DNA from: Sinohyriopsis cumingii
Taxonomy: Eukaryota; Mollusca; Bivalvia; Unionida; Unionidae
DNA length: 64,000 nt
Assembly: GCA_028554795.2 (NCBI GenBank)
Contig: CM068824.1
Span: 158,174,289-158,238,288 of the forward strand
Direction of reading: 5' to 3'
Below the pieces are notes generated by a model. The model ran no database searches. It saw only the letters and a list, made by a program, of their open reading frames with translations, and was not told the origin of the DNA. Of the stretch, positions 2,650 to 44,671 are shown in pieces. The number at the start of each line of letters is the position of its first letter. Positions within the stretch are counted from its first letter, which is position 1. The position numbers and the translations under genes were made by a program.

Positions 2650-3067
2650 GAAACGAGGTTACGCAGCTTATTTATTTATTTATTTTTTTAATATTTTTTT
2701 TTGATGCAGCCAGACATTCAACGTCGGTGGACTATCTGTTTCACTAAACTCGTTAATATTATTAATCCTTGATCGTTTCTGCGTGGATTAAATAAAGGCC
2801 GTTCTATAGAATTAGGGAAAAGGGTGCGTATAGGGTACGTACGCATGTGGGGGTGGGGGTGTAAAAAGTACGCATGTGTACGGGGAGGGGGGAGCTTTGC
2901 CAGATTTTTGCGTACGTACTAAATGGATTACCTCGCAGCATATTCTGTGTGAGTTAACGGAATATGCGAGCATAAAATGTTTTCTTATAAATTAAATATA
3001 ATTTGATTGCAATAACTTCATTGACCAGTAATTCAAAATACTATTTGGGTTTGACTATCTTACTTAC

Positions 3068-3310
3068 ACGAATAATGGCTACACATTGGATCCGCCTTTA
3101 TATTGGCTTTGGGGACATCATAGTAGTGGGTTTTCCCGAGGAAGCACGTAGAAATATCATCACAATAGTCAAAAGATTTGCAGTTGAAGCCGTCATAGTC
3201 GATACAGAGCTTGGCGCACTCGTCGGAAGAAAAGATGTTCTGATAAATAGCGTCAGAGCTGGACAGAACTGTCGTTCCTGGGATTTGGTTGAACGCCGCT
3301 GAATATTTAC
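3068..3310 (-). CDS. Host PAN/LolA-like gene, exon (PAN/apple module 3)
   Basis: The acceptor is CTTATAG and the donor is GTAAGT, phase 1 to 1. It encodes YSAAFNQIPGTTVLSSSDA followed by the PAN core DECAKLCIDYDGFNCKSFDY and STCFLGKT. It is close in pattern to the last exon at 0.5-0.75 kb. Confidence 0.78.
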
Positions 3311-4289
3311 CTATAAGACAAGGTACATGGATGATATTTGCGTACCAAATACTAAACACAATATTTAATTTAGAAATTGTGGAAGTCTGAATTTCTGTAA
3401 CATCATGTACATTCGTTGGTGTAAAATTTATTTTATTGGAGTAAATATGCGATTTTGTGTTGATACAGTTACCTGGAGTCACGCTGTCTGACTTAACTTC
3501 AGAAGAACAATACATGTACTAGTTTTAATGGTGGAATTAATGTTCGTTATCCATAAGAAAACATATGGATCCTCCACGACCATTTAAAATTTTAGAGTGA
3601 TCAAATATGTGACAGTTACTGGGAATATAAGCGAAAATAGAACAGATACTTCATGGAATGAAGTCATAGACAAATTGTCTGCTCTTGCTTGGCCAGTTTC
3701 ATTTGCATTCAAATAAGTGCAACCTGGTTAATAGAATTATGATACGTTTAGGGTAGAATTCAAATAAAAGCTATTTTATTGCACGTTACGCTAACGACAT
3801 GACGGGCTAATCGTTTGATGTTTTTGGAGGGCAACTAAGTCCGCTATTGGAATCTTTTAATTATCTGAATGAATTGGTTATCTCGATATGTGCCGACATT
3901 TGGCACGATTTTAATTGAGAAAACCACTTGATAATTTATCAATGGAAATGTACATTACATTTCTTGTTCTAATCCGTCTCGCAGATCATGATGCATCGCT
4001 TTTACGGTAAATAAGCAAGTTTTGTTCAGGGTATTTCATGTGAAAAATTCAATCGGTATATATTTAGTACCATATGCAAGCACACTTTACGAAACATTTG
4101 GAACTCCGAAAAGATCTGTAATAGTTCCCAAAACAAGGTTTGTTGTTCGCTTTGCAAACTGTAGTTCTATACAGGACAAATTGATTTAACCTTTTTATTC
4201 ATATTAAAACTATTAAATAAAAATGATTAACTGGTATGTAAATCGTGCCATTTGCTGAGCGGTCAAGATATGGCAGCTTGAACACTCAC

Positions 4290-24496: not shown

Positions 24497-24502
24497 GCCG
24501 CA
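24497..24502. repeat. Target-site duplication, left copy
   Basis: GCCGCA lies immediately left of the AGTAGTTAAG terminus and is identical to the six bases right of the other end. Six-bp duplications are characteristic of Polinton integration. Confidence 0.93.
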
Positions 24503-24872
24503 AGTAGTTAAGTGGGGCTCTTTACGTACAATGGGAATTAGCATTACAGACCCCCCCCCCCGGGTCAGATTACGTACAATGGAAATTTAACATGGCGAAA
24601 AATCGTGGGTCAGATTACGTACAATGGGAATTAACATGGCGATAAATCGTGGGTCACTTTACGTACAAGGGGAATTTAACATGGGAATAAATCGTGGGTC
24701 ACTTTACGTACAAGGGGAATTTAACATGGGGGAATAGAGTTTGGGTTTGTCTAGGGACAAGGGGAATTGAACATGAGATTTTTTTTTTTTTTTTAATTTA
24801 AAAAAAGGGGTAGGCAATTGAAAAGTCATTCTCTTTTCGAGAAATATGGGTGGCCCTGAAAAGGGCCTTTGG
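24503..24872 (+). repeat. Polinton left terminal inverted repeat
   Basis: This is about 370 bp, inverted and nearly identical to 44289-44665. The outer part is six imperfect units of about 44 bp with a core like TTTACGTACAATGGGAATT and ending ACATGG. A C-tract, an A/T tract, a unique AGTCATTCTCTTTTCGAGAA segment and the GGCCCT hairpin at the inner edge complete it. Polinton termini are thought to carry the protein-primed replication origin; a role for the tandem units in that is inference. Confidence 0.93.
24852..24867 (-). terminator. GGCCCT/AGGGCC hairpin at left TIR inner edge
   Basis: This is a perfect 6-bp stem with a 4-nt loop (GGCCCT-GAAA-AGGGCC on plus). It is the inverted counterpart of the copies at 25949, 42501, 43365 and 44294. 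Here it points outwards and no gene lies in front of it. Confidence 0.5.
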
Positions 24873-24873
24873 G

Positions 24874-24901
24874 TTTATGTTAATGTATCCATTAACATAA
24901 A
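24874..24901. repeat. Perfect 12-bp inverted repeat beside the left TIR
   Basis: TTTATGTTAATG and its exact complement CATTAACATAAA flank a 4-nt loop. It lies 6 bp inside the TIR hairpin and has no partner at the right end. Its function is unknown; a protein-binding site or RNA hairpin is possible. Confidence 0.7.
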
Positions 24902-26217: not shown

Positions 26218-26682
26218 TTAGCCTCTCTGTTTTTTAAATTTCTTCACTGTCACACTCTTTTCCTCTTCTTCCTCCTCACTTTCTTCCCTTCTTCTTTTCT
26301 CCTCCTGTTTCTTTTTCTTCACCTGTCTGCTTTCTTCCTCTGAAAAATCCCTCTCTTCTTCCGAAGAATCCCTCTCTTCTTCTGAAGAATCCTTCTTTTC
26401 TTCTGACTCCTCTTGTTTCTTTTTTGGGCAATCTGGAGACCAATGTCCTTTTTCTTTACAATAATAACAGGTATCTTGACTTTTGTCTTTTTTACCCCCT
26501 GTTTTTTTTTGACGGTCTGGACACTCTGAAGACCAATGCCCTTTCTTCTGACAGATATAGCAAGTATCTTGACTTTTATCTCGAAAGGAAGGAGAGTAGT
26601 CCGTGGGCTGGTCTGAAGAGAATTTTCTAATGACCCCTCGCAAAGCTCTGACGAAACGTTCGATTTGGTTAGTCTCTTCCAT
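26218..26682 (-). CDS. Polinton accessory protein with two CCHC zinc knuckles
   Basis: This is an intact 154-aa frame on the minus strand, taken from the first ATG; upstream in-frame codons are non-ATG. Two zinc knuckles fit C-x2-C-x4-H-x4-C exactly: C41/C44/H49/C54 (CYICQKKGHWSSEC) and C72/C75/H80/C85 (CYYCKEKGHWSPDC). The N terminus (RFVRALRGVIRKF) is a basic amphipathic stretch, and the C terminus alternates acidic SEEE and basic KKKK tracts. CCHC knuckles bind single-stranded nucleic acid in retroviral nucleocapsids and in host CNBP-type proteins. It is the only minus-strand gene of the element, divergent from polymerase and convergent with the leftmost gene. AATAAA on its strand lies near 26131. 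Its role is unknown; nucleic-acid binding or packaging is inference. Confidence 0.8.
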   Translation of the reverse strand: MEETNQIERFVRALRGVIRKFSSDQPTDYSPSFRDKSQDTCYICQKKGHWSSECPDRQKKTGGKKDKSQDTCYYCKEKGHWSPDCPKKKQEESEEKKDSSEEERDSSEEERDFSEEESRQVKKKKQEEKRRREESEEEEEEKSVTVKKFKKQRG

Positions 26683-26903
26683 CGTTGTGCTCGGCTTGAG
26701 AGTGAAATGAATAGTGAAAGGACAAGACACACACCCTTTCCTATACGCTGGTCTGCCATGACTATAAATTAGTCTATGGTGTTTAAACTTGAGTCATTTG
26801 ACGTTTTTCACTCAAGATGAAATGATCCTATTCATTCGAGAAGAAAGAAGAAGAAAGTAAGAGGCAGAAACATGATCTATCGCCTCGTACCAGAGCTGAA
26901 ATC
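26683..26903. promoter_or_regulatory. Divergent promoter region between zinc-knuckle and polymerase genes
   Basis: This stretch of about 220 bp separates the two divergent genes. It contains GACTATAAATTAG near 26760, a TATA-like box that could serve either side. The rest is AG-rich leader, and I see no other gene here. Confidence 0.4.
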
Positions 26904-29900
26904 TTGGCACAAATTTATGGCAGTGATTTTGAAGAGGACATGAGTGAACCAGAATTTGAAACCTCTAAACCAAGTTCACCACCCTTAGTCAACCCTGAAA
27001 ATTACTATTCCATTCGAGAGACGGAAAAGCGCTCCTCTAGAAAATTTAGAACCACGGCTTACAAATACACGGTGAAGTTTAAAGATTTCAAGGCTGAAGT
27101 GCCGTTAGAGAAAGCAGAAGTGTTTATCACTGGGATGTGGGATTCTTTGCTCACTGCACTCAAGCGACAATGTCAACCCAAAGAAGACGATCTCTTGAGA
27201 CTTTCCATACAACACGACGGTTTGAAATCCCCTGTTTGGATCGAGTTCAGCACCCCTGCAGAATTGACCGCTTCCAAAGTCATGGACAAGATTCAACACG
27301 TACAACAATCTAATGATCAGTTTGACATCACCGATGGTAAAGCCACACTGGACATGACCCACGTCTCTCCTCCTCAAGGGACTGGACGCAAAAAGATGTC
27401 ATTGGTGGACGACCTTCGCAACACCAAAAAGAGTCTCGTCCGAATTAACAACACTCATGACCAGATGTGTTTAGCCCGTGCCATCGTGGTGGGACGAACC
27501 AATGCCAACAAGAACGACACGGTAGAATGGAAAAGAACCTGGAACACTATTCAACGTTCCTATCGAGCCAAACAACGAAACGAAGCAGAACTCCTGTTGC
27601 AACAAGCTGGCCTGTCCAAAGAGACACCCTGTGGCATTCCTGAGATGCAAAAATTGCAAGATGTCCTAGCTCCACGATACACCTTGAAAGTGCACCCTCA
27701 AGAAGTGCGCGGACCTCTGTTGTTTCGAGGTCAAGACTTTAAGGACGGAAAATACATTCATGTCTATTATCACGATGAACATTTCGATACCATTACCAGT
27801 ATCACCGGATTCCTGGGATACAGTTAGTACTGTGACAAATGTGACCTTGGTTATAATAATCGAGAGCAACACAAGCATTGTGGATCGAAATGCCCAGGAT
27901 GTTTGGCCTCTCCACCCTGTCTGAGCGAAGGACCAGTGCCTTGTTCAACTTGTCTGCGCACGTTTGTCAGCCCTGCCTTTTACCAACAACATCTGAAAAC
28001 ACAAGGTTCACAGCAGAAATGTGCTTGTCAACTGCTGAGATTGTGCCCTACCTGTGGACAAGGCATACTTACCAATAATGCCAAGGCACACGTATGTCGA
28101 GGAAAGAAAAAATGTCACATTTGTCACCACATCGTGGACTTGGAACACCAATGCTACGTGCAAAAATACCAACCCCCACCAGAGAAAGAGGACGGTCACA
28201 AGAAGAAAGGCAATTTCATCTTTTTCGATTTCGAATGCATGCAAGAGACCGGCATTCACATTCCTAATTTCTGCGTGGCTCATCGAGCGTGCGAGAAGTG
28301 CATTCAAGAACCTATCTTCAGTCATTGCCCTCACTGCAGCAAGATTCCTGGAGGGGATGAAAAAATCTTTCGGGGACCGAACACGTTAGCCGATTTTGCC
28401 CAATGGGTTTTAGACCCCATCGACAAGACGTGGAGCCAAGAGGACATCGAACGTTACGGAGATTGTCATCGTCATGCCACGGTGATGGCTCACAATTTCT
28501 CCGGATACGATGGACAGTTTCTTCTCAGATACTATACAGAACATGGCACCGAACGTCCTAAAGTGACTTTGAACGAAGCCAAAATCATTTTCATGCAAGT
28601 GGGACAAGTACAGTTTAAAGATTCGATGAGCTATTTGGCCATGCCTTTGAGTCGAATGCCTAAAACGTTTGGAATGACAGAAATGGCTAAAGTGTACTTT
28701 CCACACTTTTTCAATACGGAAGCCAATCAACACGCCGTTCTACCCCATTTACCTGAGGCTCACTATTACGACCCCGACAACATGCGTACCGAACAACGAG
28801 AAGCTTTCTACGCTTGGTACCAGGCTCACGTCTCGGGCCCTTTCGACTTTCAGGAAGAAATGCTAAAGTATTGTCGTTCCGACGTGGACATTTTACGGCG
28901 TTGCTGTGGAAAATTTCGAGAACTGTTCATGGAACACGGAGGGGTCGATCCTTTGAAAGAAGCTTGCACCATTGCCAAAGCGTGTTCCTTAGTGTATCGA
29001 CAACGATTCATGCCTGAAAACACCGTGGCTGTCATCAGTCCTCAAACGACCCACTTTGTCAAACGTCAATACTCGGTCAAAGCCCTACGTTGGTTACATT
29101 ACTTGTGCGACAAGGAAGACAAGTGGATTCAGCATGCCCGTAACGGAGGGGGTGAAAAGACCATCGGAACGTATTCGGTCGATGGCTGGGACTTAGAAAA
29201 CCCCAAGATCGTGTACGAGTTTAACGGTTGCTTATTTCACGGATGTCCCGTCTGCTACCCTGACCGTAGCACTAAAAATCTGTTTTTACAACGAACCATG
29301 GAAGACTTGTACCAGGACACTTGTCAGCGACGCCTAAAGTTAGAACAGCAAGAATATAAAGTGGTGGAAATGTGGGAACACGAGTACGATCACCGTATGA
29401 AAACCGATCCCGAGTTTAAACGCCTCGTGGAAAGTTACCAGTTCATGGACCCGCTGAACCCTAGGGATAGTTTGTACGGAGGAAGGACCAATGCCACCTG
29501 TTTGCTGTACGAAGCCGACGAAGAGAAAGGAGAAGAAATCAAATACTTGGACGTGTGTTCGCTGTATCCCTACGTGTGCAAATATTGTCGCTTTCCTGTA
29601 GGGCACCCTCAATTGCTGACGGAACACATCGACCTGAAAAACATTTGACAATACGAAGGCTTGACCAAGTGTAAAGTTTTGTCTCCCACGAACCTATAAC
29701 ATCCCGTCTTACCTCACCATTGTCAAGGCAAACTGATGTTTCCCTTGTGCCGTACTTGTGCCGAAACGTGCAACCAAGACCAGCCTTGCCATCACACCCA
29801 GGAAGAACGTGCCTTGACGGGAACCTGGGTCAGCGTAGAATTGTTCAAAGCTCTGGACATGGGATACCAACTGTTAGAAGTGTACGAAATTTGCCACTTT

Positions 29901-30911: not shown

Positions 30912-31550
30912 ATGAATACTTTCAGAGAAACACAAAACAAGTTGTTTAGAAAGGCACAATTCAAATGTGAGGCTTTGGAAGTGGAATGCGATTGTGAGCC
31001 TTGCGATGGGTACGATGCTGTACGTTGTGACCTGAGCGATGCCGTAAAGCATCATGGGAACTTTAGTGTCACTACCCCTATCATGGAAAGGGATGCTGTG
31101 CGTGTCAAACCTGAGGGATGCGAAAGTGATGCCGCTCGTCCTCTTGGACATTTTACTGGGTTTCGTTTTAAAGGGGAATGTTCACCTTCACGTCTACCCC
31201 CCTATGGATGTCATCCAGCCCTGAGCAAACTCCTGTTCATGTCACCCAACCCTCATCGAAATGAACCTGTGAAAGACGAATATTCGTTTCCTATGCGTTT
31301 GTCGGAATACTGCGACTTTGAAAATCGTCTTCAATCGTTCAAAGGAAAATGGCCTAAGTATTTGGGAGGACCGATCCCCGAAGAATTAGCCAGAGCCGGA
31401 TTTTTCTACTTGGGCGAAGGAGATAAAGTCAAGTGCTTCAGTTGCGGTGTGTCACTTCATTACTGGGAAGCGCAAGATTCGGCCTACGTAGAACATGCTC
31501 GATGGTCACCGAATTGTCATTACTTACCCTTAGTGGGACCGAGACATTGA
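30912..31550 (+). CDS. BIR-domain (inhibitor of apoptosis-like) protein in the Polinton
   Basis: This is an intact 212-aa frame. Residues ~134-206 are a BIR domain with every hallmark. It opens with YCDFENRLQSFKGKWP, followed by PEELARAGFFYLGEGDKVKC. The zinc ligands C175-x2-C178-x16-H195-x6-C202 have exact BIR spacing. BIR proteins bind caspases or IAP antagonists and block apoptosis; baculoviruses and other large DNA viruses carry captured copies. There is only one BIR and no RING finger. The N-terminal ~130 residues are Cys-containing (CDCEPCDGYDAVRC) and not recognised. It opens an accessory cassette between polymerase and ATPase. Capture from a mollusc IAP and an anti-death role are inference. 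Confidence 0.9.
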   Translation: MNTFRETQNKLFRKAQFKCEALEVECDCEPCDGYDAVRCDLSDAVKHHGNFSVTTPIMERDAVRVKPEGCESDAARPLGHFTGFRFKGECSPSRLPPYGCHPALSKLLFMSPNPHRNEPVKDEYSFPMRLSEYCDFENRLQSFKGKWPKYLGGPIPEELARAGFFYLGEGDKVKCFSCGVSLHYWEAQDSAYVEHARWSPNCHYLPLVGPRH

Positions 31551-31572
31551 AGTAACTTACCATAATCTGTTC

Positions 31573-32028
31573 ATGGATACTTTACAAGAGAACATTCGTG
31601 CTTTGCCTGTGGAGTTGAGAGAACGCATTTACCGAGAGCTGGTCAAAATACAAGTCAAACGTAAAGAACAATTGCATCCGTTACGTCACCGGTGTTTGAA
31701 CCACTGGCACCCGAATGCTATACAAGGGCTGATTGAGTTGAAAGTGTTCCATTGGACAGACATTGATCAACGACCCCCTAGTTTTAAAAAGGAATGGTTT
31801 GGTATTGACAATTCTATCTACTACATTGTAAACGTACTGCATCGATTTCCAGAGGAAGAGTTAACGAATTACCAACATCTTGAACACAATGTCAACTTGG
31901 TGAAAGAGGAAACTTCTGAACGAGTTGTAACGTGTAAATTAGTAACTAAACGATTTAGATTCGACAATGAATTAAAACCATGTCTGTGCAAAGAGTACAT
32001 GTCTTGTGTCAGACCAAAGAGGATTTAG
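31573..32028 (+). CDS. F-box-like protein, tandem copy 1
   Basis: This is an intact 151-aa frame. The N terminus LPVELRERIYRELVKIQVKR fits the F-box-like LP-x-E-L-R-x-x-I-Y-x-x-L pattern used by SCF ubiquitin ligase adaptors and by many viral hijackers. The remainder is Trp/His/aromatic-rich and ends in a Cys-Lys-Glu-Tyr segment shared with copy 3. The gene starts 23 bp after the BIR gene and ends 13 bp before copy 2. Host-protein degradation is a guess from the motif; the C-terminal target-binding part is unrecognised. Confidence 0.7.
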   Translation: MDTLQENIRALPVELRERIYRELVKIQVKRKEQLHPLRHRCLNHWHPNAIQGLIELKVFHWTDIDQRPPSFKKEWFGIDNSIYYIVNVLHRFPEEELTNYQHLEHNVNLVKEETSERVVTCKLVTKRFRFDNELKPCLCKEYMSCVRPKRI

Positions 32029-32040
32029 TATGACCTATTC

Positions 32041-32313
32041 ATGGATACTTTGCTAGAGAACATTCGTGTTTTGCCTGTGGAGTTGAGAGAACGCATTTAC
32101 CGAGAACTGATCAAAATACAAGTGAAACGCAAGCTCAAAGTGATTGAACCGTTTTTAAATTATGCTCTGTTCCAAAGTATAAGAAGACTGATTATGAGTG
32201 GATATTACATCAGGCACAAAGGTAAACGAGGCATTTGGCCAACACCCAAGGATTCCAAAAACAGTGTATATACTTATGGATACTTTACAAGAGAACATTT
32301 TGGGCTTGCCTGA
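32041..32313 (+). CDS. F-box-like protein, tandem copy 2 (short)
   Basis: This 90-aa frame has an N terminus nearly identical to copies 1 and 3 (LPVELRERIYRELIKIQVKR), followed by a different, shorter C-terminal part. It overlaps the start of copy 3 by 38 bp in another frame. The shared N terminus and flanking ATGGATACTTT show recent tandem duplication. It is the weakest of the three as a functional gene. Confidence 0.55.
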   Translation: MDTLLENIRVLPVELRERIYRELIKIQVKRKLKVIEPFLNYALFQSIRRLIMSGYYIRHKGKRGIWPTPKDSKNSVYTYGYFTREHFGLA

Positions 32314-32812
32314 GGAGTTGAGAGAAAGGATTTACCGAGAACTGGTGAAAATACAAGTGAAACGTAAAGAACAATTGCATCCGTTACGTCACGAGATCTT
32401 TAACCACTGGTACCTGAATGGTATAAGAAAACTGATTCGTCAGAAATTGTTTCAATGGTCAGACATTGTTCAAAACTTTGAGGTCGCCAATGATCGACAT
32501 GTTCTTAATTTTGGTTACTTCGACATTCACTTACTGCAACGCATTGAGGAAGACGTGTTAAAGGATTACCAACATTTGTTACGTGGAATCTGCTTAGCGG
32601 AAGAGGAAACTTCTAAACGAACTCTGACGTTTCGGTTACAGTATGTAAGATTTAAATTCCCTACTGGAGAACGAAGATGTCTGGCTAGAAAGTACGTGTA
32701 TTGCATCCGAAAAAAAAGAGAATATAAAAACAGGCTGCCATGCCACGACTTATGTCACATGTCATTGAACAGATTCCGTGGAAGGAACTCAATGACCATA
32801 TTCAAACCGTAG
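32276..32812 (+). CDS. F-box-like protein, tandem copy 3
   Basis: I start this at the ATG matching copies 1 and 2, giving 178 aa; the frame is open further upstream but without homology. The N terminus is LPEELRERIYRELVKIQVKR. The C-terminal half aligns with copy 1 along its whole length, including DYQHL, EEETS and a terminal Cys/Tyr/Arg-rich segment, but is clearly diverged. A conserved N terminus with a faster-changing rest is what a degradation adaptor under host conflict would show; that is inference. Confidence 0.65.
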   Translation: MDTLQENILGLPEELRERIYRELVKIQVKRKEQLHPLRHEIFNHWYLNGIRKLIRQKLFQWSDIVQNFEVANDRHVLNFGYFDIHLLQRIEEDVLKDYQHLLRGICLAEEETSKRTLTFRLQYVRFKFPTGERRCLARKYVYCIRKKREYKNRLPCHDLCHMSLNRFRGRNSMTIFKP

Positions 32813-32964
32813 ATCATTACCATCAATTATTACAAGAACTGTATCCATTCAATTTGGGTCGACAAGTGGTGTGTGTCTTAGTGACTTGTTTTCTGGGATT
32901 TCGTTTACCAGCCGATTCTTTGTGGACTCTTTACGATCAGTACTTACCACCTCAATGGCCTTAA
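32740..32964 (+). CDS. Small Polinton protein of unknown function
   Basis: This is a 74-aa frame from ATG. It starts inside the end of F-box-like copy 3 and overlaps the next frame's start by 10 bp. It has one moderately hydrophobic segment (QVVCVLVTCFLGFRL) between two Trp/Tyr-containing flanks. I do not recognise a family. The tight overlaps resemble the compact packing of the rest of the element, which is the main support. Confidence 0.4.
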   Translation: MPRLMSHVIEQIPWKELNDHIQTVDHYHQLLQELYPFNLGRQVVCVLVTCFLGFRLPADSLWTLYDQYLPPQWP

Positions 32965-33278
32965 ATGGTCACGAAAACCTCCTTTTGCTCAAAGCCTTGC
33001 GTTTTCATCTGGATACTTCTCGACCTCTACGGGAAAACAAGATTCGTCAACTTTTAGCTACCCAAGACGTGTATGACGATGTGTGTGTAGCTTGTGACTT
33101 ACATCCCCAATGGACAGATGTCCGTGCCTGGAAAGAATGGGATTTTGAGGCTTGGACCCAAGAAGTGGCCCAGTATGCACGAGAGTTGTTCAAGGAAAAA
33201 AGTTACTTTTCAACCCGTGTTAGTGACGGTGCCAGAAGAACCCGTCACCCAGGACGGGACTGTCGTGGACAGGCCTGA
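32955..33278 (+). CDS. Small Polinton protein of unknown function
   Basis: I choose the ATG at 32955, in an ATGGCCTTAA overlap with the previous frame, giving about 107 aa. Trp-rich acidic sequence (WKEWDFEAWTQEVAQYAREL) suggests a small helical protein. The family is not recognised. It closes the accessory cassette. Confidence 0.42.
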   Translation: MALNGHENLLLLKALRFHLDTSRPLRENKIRQLLATQDVYDDVCVACDLHPQWTDVRAWKEWDFEAWTQEVAQYARELFKEKSYFSTRVSDGARRTRHPGRDCRGQA

Positions 33279-33552: not shown

Positions 33553-34312
33553 ATGGCTACCTCTGCTGTCTCTGCTCCCTCTTCCTCTACTGTCAAAGTC
33601 ATCGACGAACACTTAGATCGTGCTAGTTGGGAGGCTTTGTATCTTCGTCATCCCTTTAACATGCTCATTGCTGGACCTAGCGGTTCAGGCAAAACCGAAT
33701 TCGTCAAACGTTTGATCGAAAATAAACATCATTTGATCGATCGGCCACCTCAGCCGATCGTGTGGTGTTACAAAGAGTGGCAATCGGCGTACAACCACCT
33801 CTTGCGAGAAAGTCAAGGCGATTCCATCGTGTTTGTGGAAGGCATTCCTAAAGAAGACGACGGCATCGTCTCTGACTCCCGTCAAACCCATTTGGTCATT
33901 TTCGACGACATGTTAGGAGAAGACGAAGAAGAAATTAAACTGTGGTTCACGCGTAAAGGGCATCACCTTAATGCCAAGTGTCGTTTACATCACCCAAAAT
34001 TCGTTTCAACAAAGTAAAGCCCATCGCACCATTAGTCTCAATGCGCATTATGTGGTCTTGTTTAAAAGCCCTCGAGATAAATCGCAAGTGCAAGTCTTAG
34101 CCAAACAGTTAGGAACGCCTTGGCTGACTCAGGCGTACGACGATGCCACTCAAACGCCACACGCCTATTTACTCGTCGATTTGAAACCTACCACCCCCGA
34201 TGATTTGCGATTTCGCACCCACTTGTTTCACCACTGGTGCCAAGACGGAGGGCCTGTCCTGTACACGTCTCCGTCCTCGACTTTATTTCACTCCACATCA
34301 AAAAATCTATAA
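33553..34312 (+). pseudogene. Polinton genome-packaging ATPase (A32/FtsK-HerA type), broken
   Basis: The Walker A motif is LIAGPSGSGKTEFVKRL and the Walker B motif THLVIFDDML, followed by a YITQNSF segment and SLNAHYVVLF typical of viral FtsK/HerA packaging ATPases. The total span of about 250 codons is normal for Polintons. The frame is interrupted in this copy. It starts 47 bp after a TATA box. The enzyme would pump DNA into capsids. Confidence 0.9.
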
Positions 34313-39340: not shown

Positions 39341-40666
39341 ATGATGCACCGAGAGTCTTGTGCTTGTTCCAAGTCGGAACTGGATCTGTTTGCCATGCAC
39401 CCCACCATGATGACGATGCAAGAATCTCAGTGGGTCGAATTTCATCCCGTCTCCTCTTTGACGGAATAAGCTCCCATCGAGTTTGAAATCAAAGGACAGC
39501 CCGAAGATTACATCGATCTAAATAGCAGTTACCTGTATTTGAAGGTCAAAGTGAGCAAAACGGACAACAGCAATCCTGGAGCCAATGATAGGGTAGCTCC
39601 TGTTAACAATTTCATGCATTCCTTGTTCAGCGAAGTGGACTTGTACTTGAATAACAAACTGGTCAGCAGCAGCATGGATACTTACCCATATCGTGCCTAC
39701 CTGGAAAATCTCTTGACGTACGGAAAAGAAGCCAATAATACTCATCTGGATGCTTGCGTGGTATGGAAACCTGACACGGCAGGTGTAGGCACGTTTAACG
39801 ACACAGCCCTGACAGAAGATGACAATCCTCACAATGTGGGGTTTAACACACGTAGAAATAAAATTCTGCAAGGGCGAAGTTTAGAACTGATGGATCGTTT
39901 GCATTTGGACATGTGGTTACAAGAAAAGTATTTGCTGAACGGGGTGGATATCCGCCTGAGACTGAATCGTAGCACTGCTGCTTTCCATTTGATCGCCCAT
40001 AACAACGAATACAAAACTGTTATCCAAGAAGCCAGGCTCTACATACGACGTGTGGAAGTGTTACCCAAAGTGGGAAACGACATCAGTCAGACGTTGAGCA
40101 GAACCACCGCCAAGTATCCGATCCGACGCGTGGAAGTGAAAACGTTCACCATTCCTGTTGGACAACGATCCATGATCGAAGATCATCTGTTCCAAGGACA
40201 TTCACCCAAACGTTTGATTGTTGGTATCGTCAGAAATTCAGCTTTTAATGGACTTCACAACGAAAATCCTTTTGAGTTTCGACACTTTGGTGTGTTCAAG
40301 ATCGAAGTCAGTCGCGACGGCAAGACCTTGTGTACCCGACCCTTTGAGCCTAACTTTACCCAGAACAATTACTTGAGATCGTACTTGTCCCTGTACGAAG
40401 CCACGGGACAGTTAGGAACCAACACCAGTCACGGTATTTCGTACGACGATTATGCAGGAGGCTATGTTTTGTGGGGTTTTGATTTCACTCCAGACCAAGG
40501 CAGCGACGAGGGACATTTCCACCCAATAAAATCCGGCCAGATTCGTGTGGAAATTCAGTTTGCAAACCGAGACCCTGCTGATCCAACGTTGAACGTCATC
40601 CTGTATGCAGAATTCGACAACACGATAGAAATCAACAGTTTGAGAGAAGTCATTCTAGACTATTAG
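39341..40666 (+). pseudogene. Polinton major capsid protein (double jelly roll), broken
   Basis: This is a span of about 440 codons. Recognisable pieces include VEFHPVSS, IEFEIKG, YIDLNSSYLYLKVKV, FMHSLFSEVDLYLNNKLV and YPYRAYLENLLTYG. This is the conserved Polinton/adintovirus major capsid core, whose trimers build the icosahedral shell. The frame is interrupted in this copy. It is followed at once by the Cys-His protein and the protease. Confidence 0.92.
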
Positions 40667-41185: not shown

Positions 41186-41758
41186 ATGGATACCTGGGAA
41201 CTTTATTACCTTTTGAACCACAGTTCGTACACGGCTTCTTGGAATCCTGTCGTCTGTGCTAAAGATGAACTCCCTCATCGCAAACCTAAAGACCATCAAG
41301 TTTACGTGATCAACACGGACGACAGTCATCTCCCAGGAACCCACTGGGTAGCCGTCTACTTTCCTCAAGAAGGATGTGTGGAATATTTCGATTCGTACGG
41401 ATTGCCCCCTTTGGAAGACGATATCATCGACTTTATGAGAAGAAATGCTCAGACCACCCGATTCAATAATGTGAAATTACAAGGCACAGATTCCTTGGTG
41501 TGTGGACAGTACTGTGTGTATTTTCTGCATCATCGCAGCCTGGGCTATTCCCTAGAACATTTAGTGACTCATTTTGATCCTCGTTCTTCTTCAAGAAACG
41601 ATGTGAAAGTAGATCGATGGTTCTGTGACCATTATGCTTATCTTTTGTCTCAAGCTAGGAAACGTAGTGTCCATCAATGGCCTAATGATGTCCAACAGTG
41701 GAAATCACAATTTCATTCACAACGTTGTCAGCCCTGTTTAAAGTACAGTGTGAATTGA
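41186..41758 (+). CDS. Polinton adenain-type cysteine protease
   Basis: This is an intact 190-aa frame. The catalytic set matches adenovirus protease: H53 (PGTHWVAVYF), D69 (EYFDSYG), Q99 (KLQGTDS) and C106 (LVCGQYC). The Gln-to-Cys spacing of seven residues and the His-to-acid spacing are as in adenain. It would cut capsid and core precursors during virion maturation. AATAAA follows at 41867-41872. Confidence 0.93.
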   Translation: MDTWELYYLLNHSSYTASWNPVVCAKDELPHRKPKDHQVYVINTDDSHLPGTHWVAVYFPQEGCVEYFDSYGLPPLEDDIIDFMRRNAQTTRFNNVKLQGTDSLVCGQYCVYFLHHRSLGYSLEHLVTHFDPRSSSRNDVKVDRWFCDHYAYLLSQARKRSVHQWPNDVQQWKSQFHSQRCQPCLKYSVN

Positions 41759-44269: not shown

Positions 44270-44288
44270 AAGCAGAAGAAGAAGAAAA

Positions 44289-44665
44289 CCAAAGGCCCTT
44301 TTCAGGGCCACCCATATTTCTCGAAAAGAGAATGACTTTTCAATTGCCTACCCCTTTTTTTAAATTTTTTTTTTTAAAAAAAAAAAAATCCCATGTTCAA
44401 TTCCCCTTGTCCCTAGACAAACCCAACTCTATTCCCCCATGTTAAATTCCCCTTGTACGTAAAGTGACCCACGATTTATTCCCATGTTAAATTCCCCTTG
44501 TACGTAAAGTGACCCACGATTTATCGCCATGTTAATTCCCATTGTACGTAATCTGACCCACGATTTTTCGCCATGTTAAATTTCCATTGTACGTAATCTG
44601 ACCGGGGGGGGGGGGGGTCTGTAATGCTAATTCCCATTGTACGTAAAGTGCCCCACTTAACTACT
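44289..44665 (-). repeat. Polinton right terminal inverted repeat
   Basis: This is the inverted partner of the left TIR, about 377 bp. The length difference comes from a longer G/C tract and a longer A/T tract. Its inner edge carries the hairpin that follows the last charged coiled-coil gene. Confidence 0.93.
44294..44309 (+). terminator. GGCCCT/AGGGCC hairpin at right TIR inner edge
   Basis: This is the TIR copy of the recurrent hairpin, with a TTTC loop, just after array gene 3. Confidence 0.5.
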
Positions 44666-44671
44666 GCCGCA
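44666..44671. repeat. Target-site duplication, right copy
   Basis: GCCGCA follows the CTTAACTACT terminus directly and matches the left copy exactly. Confidence 0.93.

What the first reader, a model, noticed from the sequence alone, without database searches (positions are those of the whole stretch)
30912..31550. Inhibitor-of-apoptosis (BIR) gene carried by a Polinton
C-x2-C-x16-H-x6-C with the full BIR context is unmistakable. A single BIR without RING, fused to an unrecognised Cys-rich N-terminal region of ~130 residues, suggests a captured host gene reshaped for blocking cell death, as in baculoviruses. It supports a virus-like life cycle for this lineage.
Basis: partly seen in the sequence, partly recalled or inferred. 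Interest (0 to 1): 0.75.

Follow-up and report, generated by a model that had tools for sequence, protein, structure and literature searches.

The report
Cell-death-blocker gene in Polinton elements
A virus-like jumping element in what is probably a bivalve genome carries, in many copies, a small gene that resembles the cell-death blockers of insect viruses; its working domain looks kept by selection, yet forms of the element that lost it have also multiplied.

Summary
Confirmed. Window 30912-31550 encodes a 212-aa RING-less protein with one C-terminal BIR (Pfam E 1.7e-22), inside a 20,163-bp Polinton (inverted repeats, 6-bp target duplication, PolB, integrase, ATPase, capsid gene). New: 14 of 28 sampled copies hold a second, diverged BIR gene in tandem. 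In 20 copies chosen by a neighbouring gene, dN/dS is 0.21 in the BIR and 0.65 in the N-terminal region: the BIR was under selection, while the 'Cys-rich N-terminal region' evolves fast and is predicted disordered. Yet 8 of 12 PolB-chosen elements lost the BIR by two shared deletions and still multiplied, so it is dispensable for copying within the genome. Likely role, untested: blocking host cell death by binding IBM-type peptides. The host's own IAPs were not reached, so the donor is unknown. Bold reading: intronless single-BIR 'retroposed' bivalve IAPs may be Polinton cargo.

The parts
24503..24876 (+). left terminal inverted repeat, begins AGTAGT
   Evidence: arms pair with 44285-44665, 98-99% complementary in the main blocks; sequence
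24497..24502 (.). left copy of the 6-bp target-site duplication GCCGCA
27903..29648 (+). PolB, first ORF (DNA_pol_B_2); PolB is split over two ORFs in this copy
   Evidence: PF03175 90.2 bits
29736..30605 (+). PolB, second ORF
   Evidence: PF03175 35.7 bits
30912..31550 (+). BIR1 gene: disordered residues 1-130, BIR at 139-205, no RING
31573..32028 (+). F-box-like gene A (label by eye; no Pfam match)
   Evidence: ORF; tandem kin; Pfam none at E 10; used as DNA probe
32041..32313 (+). short or truncated F-box-like paralogue
32276..32812 (+). F-box-like gene B
31006..33205 (.). stretch missing in 6 of 12 PolB-chosen copies (one shared junction); not a deletion in this copy
33553..34312 (+). packaging ATPase, split over two overlapping ORFs in this copy (33553-34017, 33971-34312)
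   Evidence: Pox_A32 27.5 bits, cut-off 22.8, first ORF; single ORF of 242-247 aa in L030, L033, L034
36393..37550 (+). integrase (rve core plus chromodomain)
   Evidence: PF00665 51.9 bits, PF00385 32.1 bits
37975..38808 (+). unassigned ORF; size and place would suit a minor capsid protein (guess)
   Evidence: no Pfam or PHROG match
39539..40666 (+). major capsid protein, double jelly roll (ORF read from a TTG; relatives are longer at the N-terminus)
   Evidence: 743 relatives; model mean pLDDT 64, Foldseek to PBCV-1, iridovirus, mavirus, Sputnik capsid proteins
41186..41758 (+). probable adenovirus-type protease
   Evidence: Peptidase_C5 16.3 bits, below its cut-off of 21.3
44285..44665 (-). 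right terminal inverted repeat, ends ACTACT
44666..44671 (.). right copy of the 6-bp target-site duplication GCCGCA

Best explanation
A RING-less single-BIR, IAP-like gene is accessory cargo of a multi-copy Polinton family. It sits in a variable island between PolB and the packaging ATPase, with tandem F-box-like genes and often a second BIR gene. Most likely mechanism (inferred, not shown): while the element replicates and packages DNA, the BIR's peptide groove binds IBM-type N-termini (Smac/HtrA2/Reaper-like antagonists, or an initiator caspase), so that host IAPs stay free or the caspase stays off and the cell lives long enough for the element. Without a RING it would work by sequestration or through host IAPs, not as a ubiquitin ligase. 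The gene pays when the element behaves as a virus but is not needed for copying within one genome, so island-deleted forms could also amplify. Shown: the BIR, its setting, copy number, tandem paralogue, constraint on the BIR, shared deletions. Inferred: target, expression, benefit during infection.
For: BIR by sequence and fold. PolB - BIR - F-box-like order in 28 of 28 BIR-chosen loci, one of which is the window itself; gene present in 20 of 20 copies chosen by the F-box-like gene and in 6 of 6 fetched of 144 matches to an unrelated IAP, one of them old (L044). dN/dS 0.21 (0.07-0.54) in the BIR against 0.65 (0.36-1.23) in the N-terminal region; shared substitutions 0.32, singletons 0.73. Duplication to a second BIR gene in 14 of 28. 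Groove: compared with a bat XIAP BIR both Trp and the Leu are kept, Glu is Asp (the roles of these positions are recalled).
Against: 8 of 12 PolB-chosen elements lack the BIR by two shared deletions and still multiplied. One groove Gly is Ser. 6 of 20 neighbour-chosen copies have stops and 5 of 20 frame-breaking indels. No expression or binding data. Whole-gene dN/dS is only 0.45 and one degraded copy against the window gives 0.57.
Confidence: 0.6

Rival explanations
1. Passive passenger: a BIR exon was picked up, rides along by amplification and does nothing for the element.
For: 8 of 12 PolB-chosen elements lost it and still spread; the N-terminal region is nearly unconstrained (0.65).
Against: dN/dS 0.21 in the BIR (upper bound 0.54) and 0.15 for shared BIR substitutions; zinc motif kept in 4 of 5 relatives P0001-P0005, P0004 having lost part of the domain; presence in an old element.
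Confidence: 0.17
2. The BIR acts on host signalling other than death, for example innate-immune or ubiquitin signalling (BIRs also bind TAB1 and RIPK2 complexes), together with the F-box-like genes.
For: Neighbouring tandem genes look like F-box proteins by eye; PDB holds XIAP BIR1-TAB1 and BIR2-RIP2K complexes among the fold matches.
Against: Pfam does not recognise the neighbours as F-box; groove residues of the peptide-binding type are mostly kept.
Confidence: 0.18
3. The copies serve the host: Polinton BIRs have become part of the host's IAP set.
For: Hard clam has 159 IAPs, 51 of them intronless and scattered, with DNA transposons but not LINE, LTR or SINE enriched nearby (PMC7831173, section 7 read).
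Against: That paper says most retroposed-type IAPs are not transcribed (passage); here singleton substitutions are near neutral (0.73), as expected of decay after insertion.
Confidence: 0.05

Closest known systems
Baculovirus and entomopoxvirus IAPs
   Same: BIR gene carried by a DNA virus of invertebrates; several were found by the profile search (P0017, P0019, P0022, P0027, P0030, P0058)
   Different: those with a full entry have two BIRs, five of the six also a RING by the Pfam column (P0058 is a 103-aa fragment); their BIRs fall outside the Polinton clade
Bivalve IAP expansion, intronless single-exon BIR clade of hard clam (Song et al. 2021, PMC7831173)
   Same: single-exon BIR, many scattered copies, DNA transposons enriched nearby (section 7 read)
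   Different: described there as retroposed host genes; whether they lie in Polintons was not tested here
Polinton/Maverick accessory genes (PMC8097293, passages; adintovirus paper not held)
   Same: element with core virus-like genes plus variable accessory ORFs
   Different: the passages seen name no BIR gene
Burro giant retrotransposons of planarians (PMC6431247, passages)
   Same: a mobile element carrying BIR and other apoptosis- and ubiquitin-related motifs
   Different: LTR retrotransposon, BIR inside a very large polyprotein
NS3-like zinc-finger proteins of bidnaviruses and others (PMC4061559, passages)
   Same: suggested apoptosis inhibitors in viruses whose PolB comes from Polintons
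   Different: called unrelated to IAPs by the authors

Membership tests
Polinton/Maverick | terminal inverted repeats with AGT-repeat ends | tested here: met
   motif described in PMC8097293 (passage)
Polinton/Maverick | 6-bp target-site duplication | tested here: met
   GCCGCA on both sides
Polinton/Maverick | PolB, rve integrase, A32-like ATPase | tested here: met
   all above Pfam cut-offs; PolB and ATPase split in this copy
Polinton/Maverick | adenovirus-type protease | tested here: inconclusive
   16.3 bits against a cut-off of 21.3
Polinton/Maverick | double jelly-roll major capsid protein | tested here: met
   Foldseek E 1e-10 to 1e-7 to capsid proteins at moderate model confidence; no sequence match in the PDB
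IAP / BIR family | BIR domain with zinc ligands C-C-H-C | tested here: met
IAP / BIR family | IBM-peptide groove (type II BIR) | tested here: inconclusive
   Trp, Leu, Trp kept, Glu to Asp, Gly to Ser against a bat XIAP BIR (roles recalled)
IAP / BIR family | inhibits cell death | not testable with these tools
   needs an assay
Baculovirus-type IAP | two BIRs plus RING in one protein | tested here: not met
   one BIR, no RING
Survivin/BIRC5 | single BIR followed by a long C-terminal helix (recalled) | tested here: not met
   the BIR ends at residue 205 of 212; the model has no long C-terminal helix

The most novel reading that the evidence does not exclude
Polintons, not retroposition, spread a RING-less single-BIR gene family through bivalve genomes: the intronless, scattered, mostly silent single-exon BIR 'IAPs' reported in hard clam, and perhaps in other bivalves, are largely cargo of virus-like elements, and the BIR / F-box-like island is a duplicating host-manipulation cassette that is gained, multiplied and lost as elements shift between infectious and purely intragenomic life.
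Probability: 0.35. Interest if true: 0.75.

Novelty: new variant of a known kind. Interest (0 to 1): 0.6.

Why it matters
If the bold reading is right, part of the bivalve IAP expansion, so far read as host adaptation, is virus-like cargo. Maverick particles have not been observed (abstract of PMC8097293 as shown), so a cell-survival gene that looks selected before insertion but is dispensable for copying in the genome would be indirect evidence of an infectious phase and makes that phase testable. Island-bearing and island-less forms side by side in one genome are a natural comparison.

Tried and rejected
Relatives in viral contigs: five scans (the BIR protein, the MCP, the integrase, alignments A2 and A5) gave no confirmed relative; phage records none; PHROGs nothing for the BIR. 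The first dN/dS script was spoilt by a misregistered copy (L020) and is discarded. The second (0.18 for 28 copies) is biased, because those copies were ranked by protein similarity; I rely, whose copies were chosen by the F-box-like gene but are still of the window's own subfamily. F-box identity: Pfam at E up to 10 gave nothing for the two larger ORFs and one chance-like death-domain hit (E 0.18) for the third; the label stays a guess. MCP by sequence against the PDB: no match, hence the fold. Equal contig lengths in BIR hits (55 of 84 typed) and listed MCP hits: two coincide; P0043 (2039 bases, from another source than the MCP entries of that length) was dropped, P0059 (13,848) kept as suggestive only. 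Tree rows dropped: P0031, P0069 (synthetic), P0006, P0072, stretches under 55 residues and all but the last BIR of multi-BIR proteins; the bootstrap had not settled and most deep forks are open; BIR2 sits on a long branch, so its place inside the clade is unsure.

Papers: the searches (also 80 and 113 on related matters) showed no paper that links a BIR/IAP gene with a Polinton, but I opened only some of those listed (PMC8905726, PMC8097293, PMC6431247, PMC8363768, PMC10120064, PMC11071308, PMC10675110, PMC4061559, PMC4028283, PMC13419823: passages or term counts only; PMC7831173: passages and section 7). The adintovirus paper and the nematode Maverick paper are not held, so prior report there is not excluded.

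Full report
1. What is there. The ORF at 30912-31550 (+) encodes 212 aa and ends 22 bp before the next gene. Residues 139-205 are a BIR (PF00653, 80.2 bits, cut-off 22.9). 82 distinct PDB sequences match at E <= 0.01, and a model from 7 sequences, of low mean confidence (46), gives the BIR fold (Foldseek to XIAP BIR2/BIR3, cIAP1, DIAP1, E about 1e-6). The zinc motif occurs once in six frames of 64 kb. There is no RING. Residues 1-130 are predicted disordered.

2. The element. Inverted repeats at 24503-24876 and 44285-44665 (98-99% complementary in the main blocks), ends AGTAGT/ACTACT and a perfect GCCGCA duplication bound 20,163 bp. These are the end motifs and 6-bp duplications described for Mavericks (PMC8097293, passages). 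Inside are PolB (PF03175), an A32-like ATPase, an integrase with chromodomain, a protease match below its cut-off and an MCP. The MCP model (mean pLDDT 64) matches double jelly-roll capsid proteins of PBCV-1, an iridovirus, mavirus and Sputnik in the PDB; in BFVD the best match is an uncharacterised bracovirus protein, followed among the named entries by NCLDV, virophage, adomavirus and MELD/adintovirus capsid proteins. In this copy PolB and the ATPase are each split over two ORFs; copies with a single ATPase ORF exist (L030, L033, L034). Of 743 MCP relatives 120 are listed; those with an organism name come from bivalves (Mercenaria, Saccostrea, Crassostrea, Ostrea), apart from one named as a bacterial MAG.

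3. Copies. In 28 of them (8 given, 20 fetched; L001 is the window itself) the order PolB - BIR - F-box-like was found in 28 of 28, and an ATPase in 20 of the 20 long stretches. 14 of 28 have a second BIR gene (BIR2) just upstream of BIR1 and 41-46% identical to it: 12 as separate ORFs of 135-153 aa, one in a 385-aa ORF together with BIR1 (L024), one without an ORF of 70 aa (L018). The window copy lacks it. The number and state of the F-box-like genes also vary. BIR1 occurs with at least two N-termini: 212 aa as here, and 247 aa with an extra Cys-rich stretch (L041, L042).

4. Samples chosen otherwise. (a) With an unrelated BIR-BIR-RING protein (P0012) as query, 144 matches were listed (143 of 14,989 candidates scored). 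I fetched 6: all 6 lie beside F-box-like genes, 4 of 6 also beside PolB in the 2.6 kb held. One of them, L044, is old and decayed: PolB pieces 71-75% identical, BIR 68%, the long F-box-like pieces 40-52%. So the cassette is older than the recent burst. This search did not show a host BIR-RING gene, which its cap may hide. (b) PF03175 gave 75 scored PolB loci; I fetched 12. Their PolB ends are 93-98% identical to the window's, except a short end piece of one split copy (L035; 77% over 22 residues), so this is the same family. 3 of 12 carry BIR1 (L029 with a stop; L039 frame-broken, with BIR2; L040). 6 of 12 share one junction (window 31006|33205) that removes the BIR and the F-box-like genes and leaves a stub of 54-73 residues; the junction was placed by blastn in 4 and read off in all 6. 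2 of 12 share another deletion that takes the whole gene (placed in one, same letters in both). 1 of 12 shows PolB only. Shared junctions at different chromosomal places mean that the deleted forms themselves amplified. (c) The F-box-like gene as DNA query gave 40 full copies (40 of 2,093 candidates scored); of the 20 I fetched, 20 carry BIR1, 6 with stops and 5 with frame-breaking indels.

5. Selection. On sample (c): dN/dS 0.45 (codon bootstrap 0.28-0.80) for the gene, 0.65 (0.36-1.23) for residues 1-130 and 0.21 (0.07-0.54) for 131-207; substitutions shared by copies 0.32, singletons 0.73; within the BIR 0.15 and 0.37. My reading is constraint before insertion and near-neutral decay after it. 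The 0.18 is biased by protein ranking. One degraded copy against the window gives 0.57. Against P0001-P0005 from other data sets the BIR is 74-83% and the N-terminal region 49-64% identical.

6. Kin. Seven homologues were found with the protein and 84 with a profile. In a tree of 81 BIR domains the window, five other BIR1 pieces from four copies, two BIR2, P0001-P0005, P0009 and P0010 form one clade of 15, support 95/95; its nearest rows are mostly other short RING-less single-BIR proteins (21-row group, 93/77). Baculovirus, entomopoxvirus, Mytilus and Saccostrea BIRs fall outside. 75 columns leave most deep forks open and the host's own IAPs are not in the tree. P0059, a single-BIR protein, and P0136, an MCP 51% identical to the window's, both report a longest contig of 13,848 bases from one source: perhaps one more Polinton with a BIR, not proven.

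7. Mechanism. Against a bat XIAP BIR (roles recalled) both Trp and the Leu of the peptide groove are kept, Glu is Asp and Gly is Ser. I infer peptide sequestration without ubiquitin-ligase activity. Nothing here shows binding or expression.

8. Known or new. BIR genes in DNA viruses are known, and so are accessory genes of Polintons. The paper searches showed no report of the pair (not all listed papers were opened), and the adintovirus paper is not held. Song et al. 2021 (PMC7831173; passages, section 7) report 159 hard-clam IAPs, 51 of them intronless and scattered, 42 of the 49 of clade 1 intronless, DNA transposons but not LINE/LTR/SINE enriched around IAPs, and most retroposed-type copies silent. 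They infer retroposition. Carriage by Polintons would predict the same. A hard-clam repeat table lists Maverick at 1.69 and 1.93 per cent in its two column sets (PMC8905726, passage). The link is my inference and untested.

Noticed in passing
31573-32812: Three tandem ORFs share a nearly identical first 36 residues (LPxELRERIYRELVKIQ), F-box-like by eye but unknown to Pfam; their number varies between copies.
   Followed up: partly
L010:3989-4447, and 13 more of L001-L028: A second, diverged BIR gene upstream of BIR1 in 14 of 28 copies, missing in the window.
   Followed up: partly
L031, L032, L033, L035, L037, L038: Island-deleted Polinton forms that share one junction. In L031 and L035 the ATPase lies in a 573-aa ORF that runs on into the next gene's sequence.
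   Followed up: partly
L041, L042, L045: A BIR1 subtype with an extra Cys-rich stretch near the N-terminus (CDGKCPEGNCDCPCGYHCNC).
   Followed up: no
26218-26730 (-): ORF with two CCHC zinc knuckles, opposite strand, between the left repeat and PolB.
   Followed up: no
24503-24740 and 44430-44665: The inverted repeats hold short internal repeats (units around TTTACGTACAA...GGGAATT...AACATGG).
   Followed up: no
3060-3515 (-): ORF that looks by eye like a PAN/apple-type cysteine domain, outside the element; not searched.
   Followed up: no
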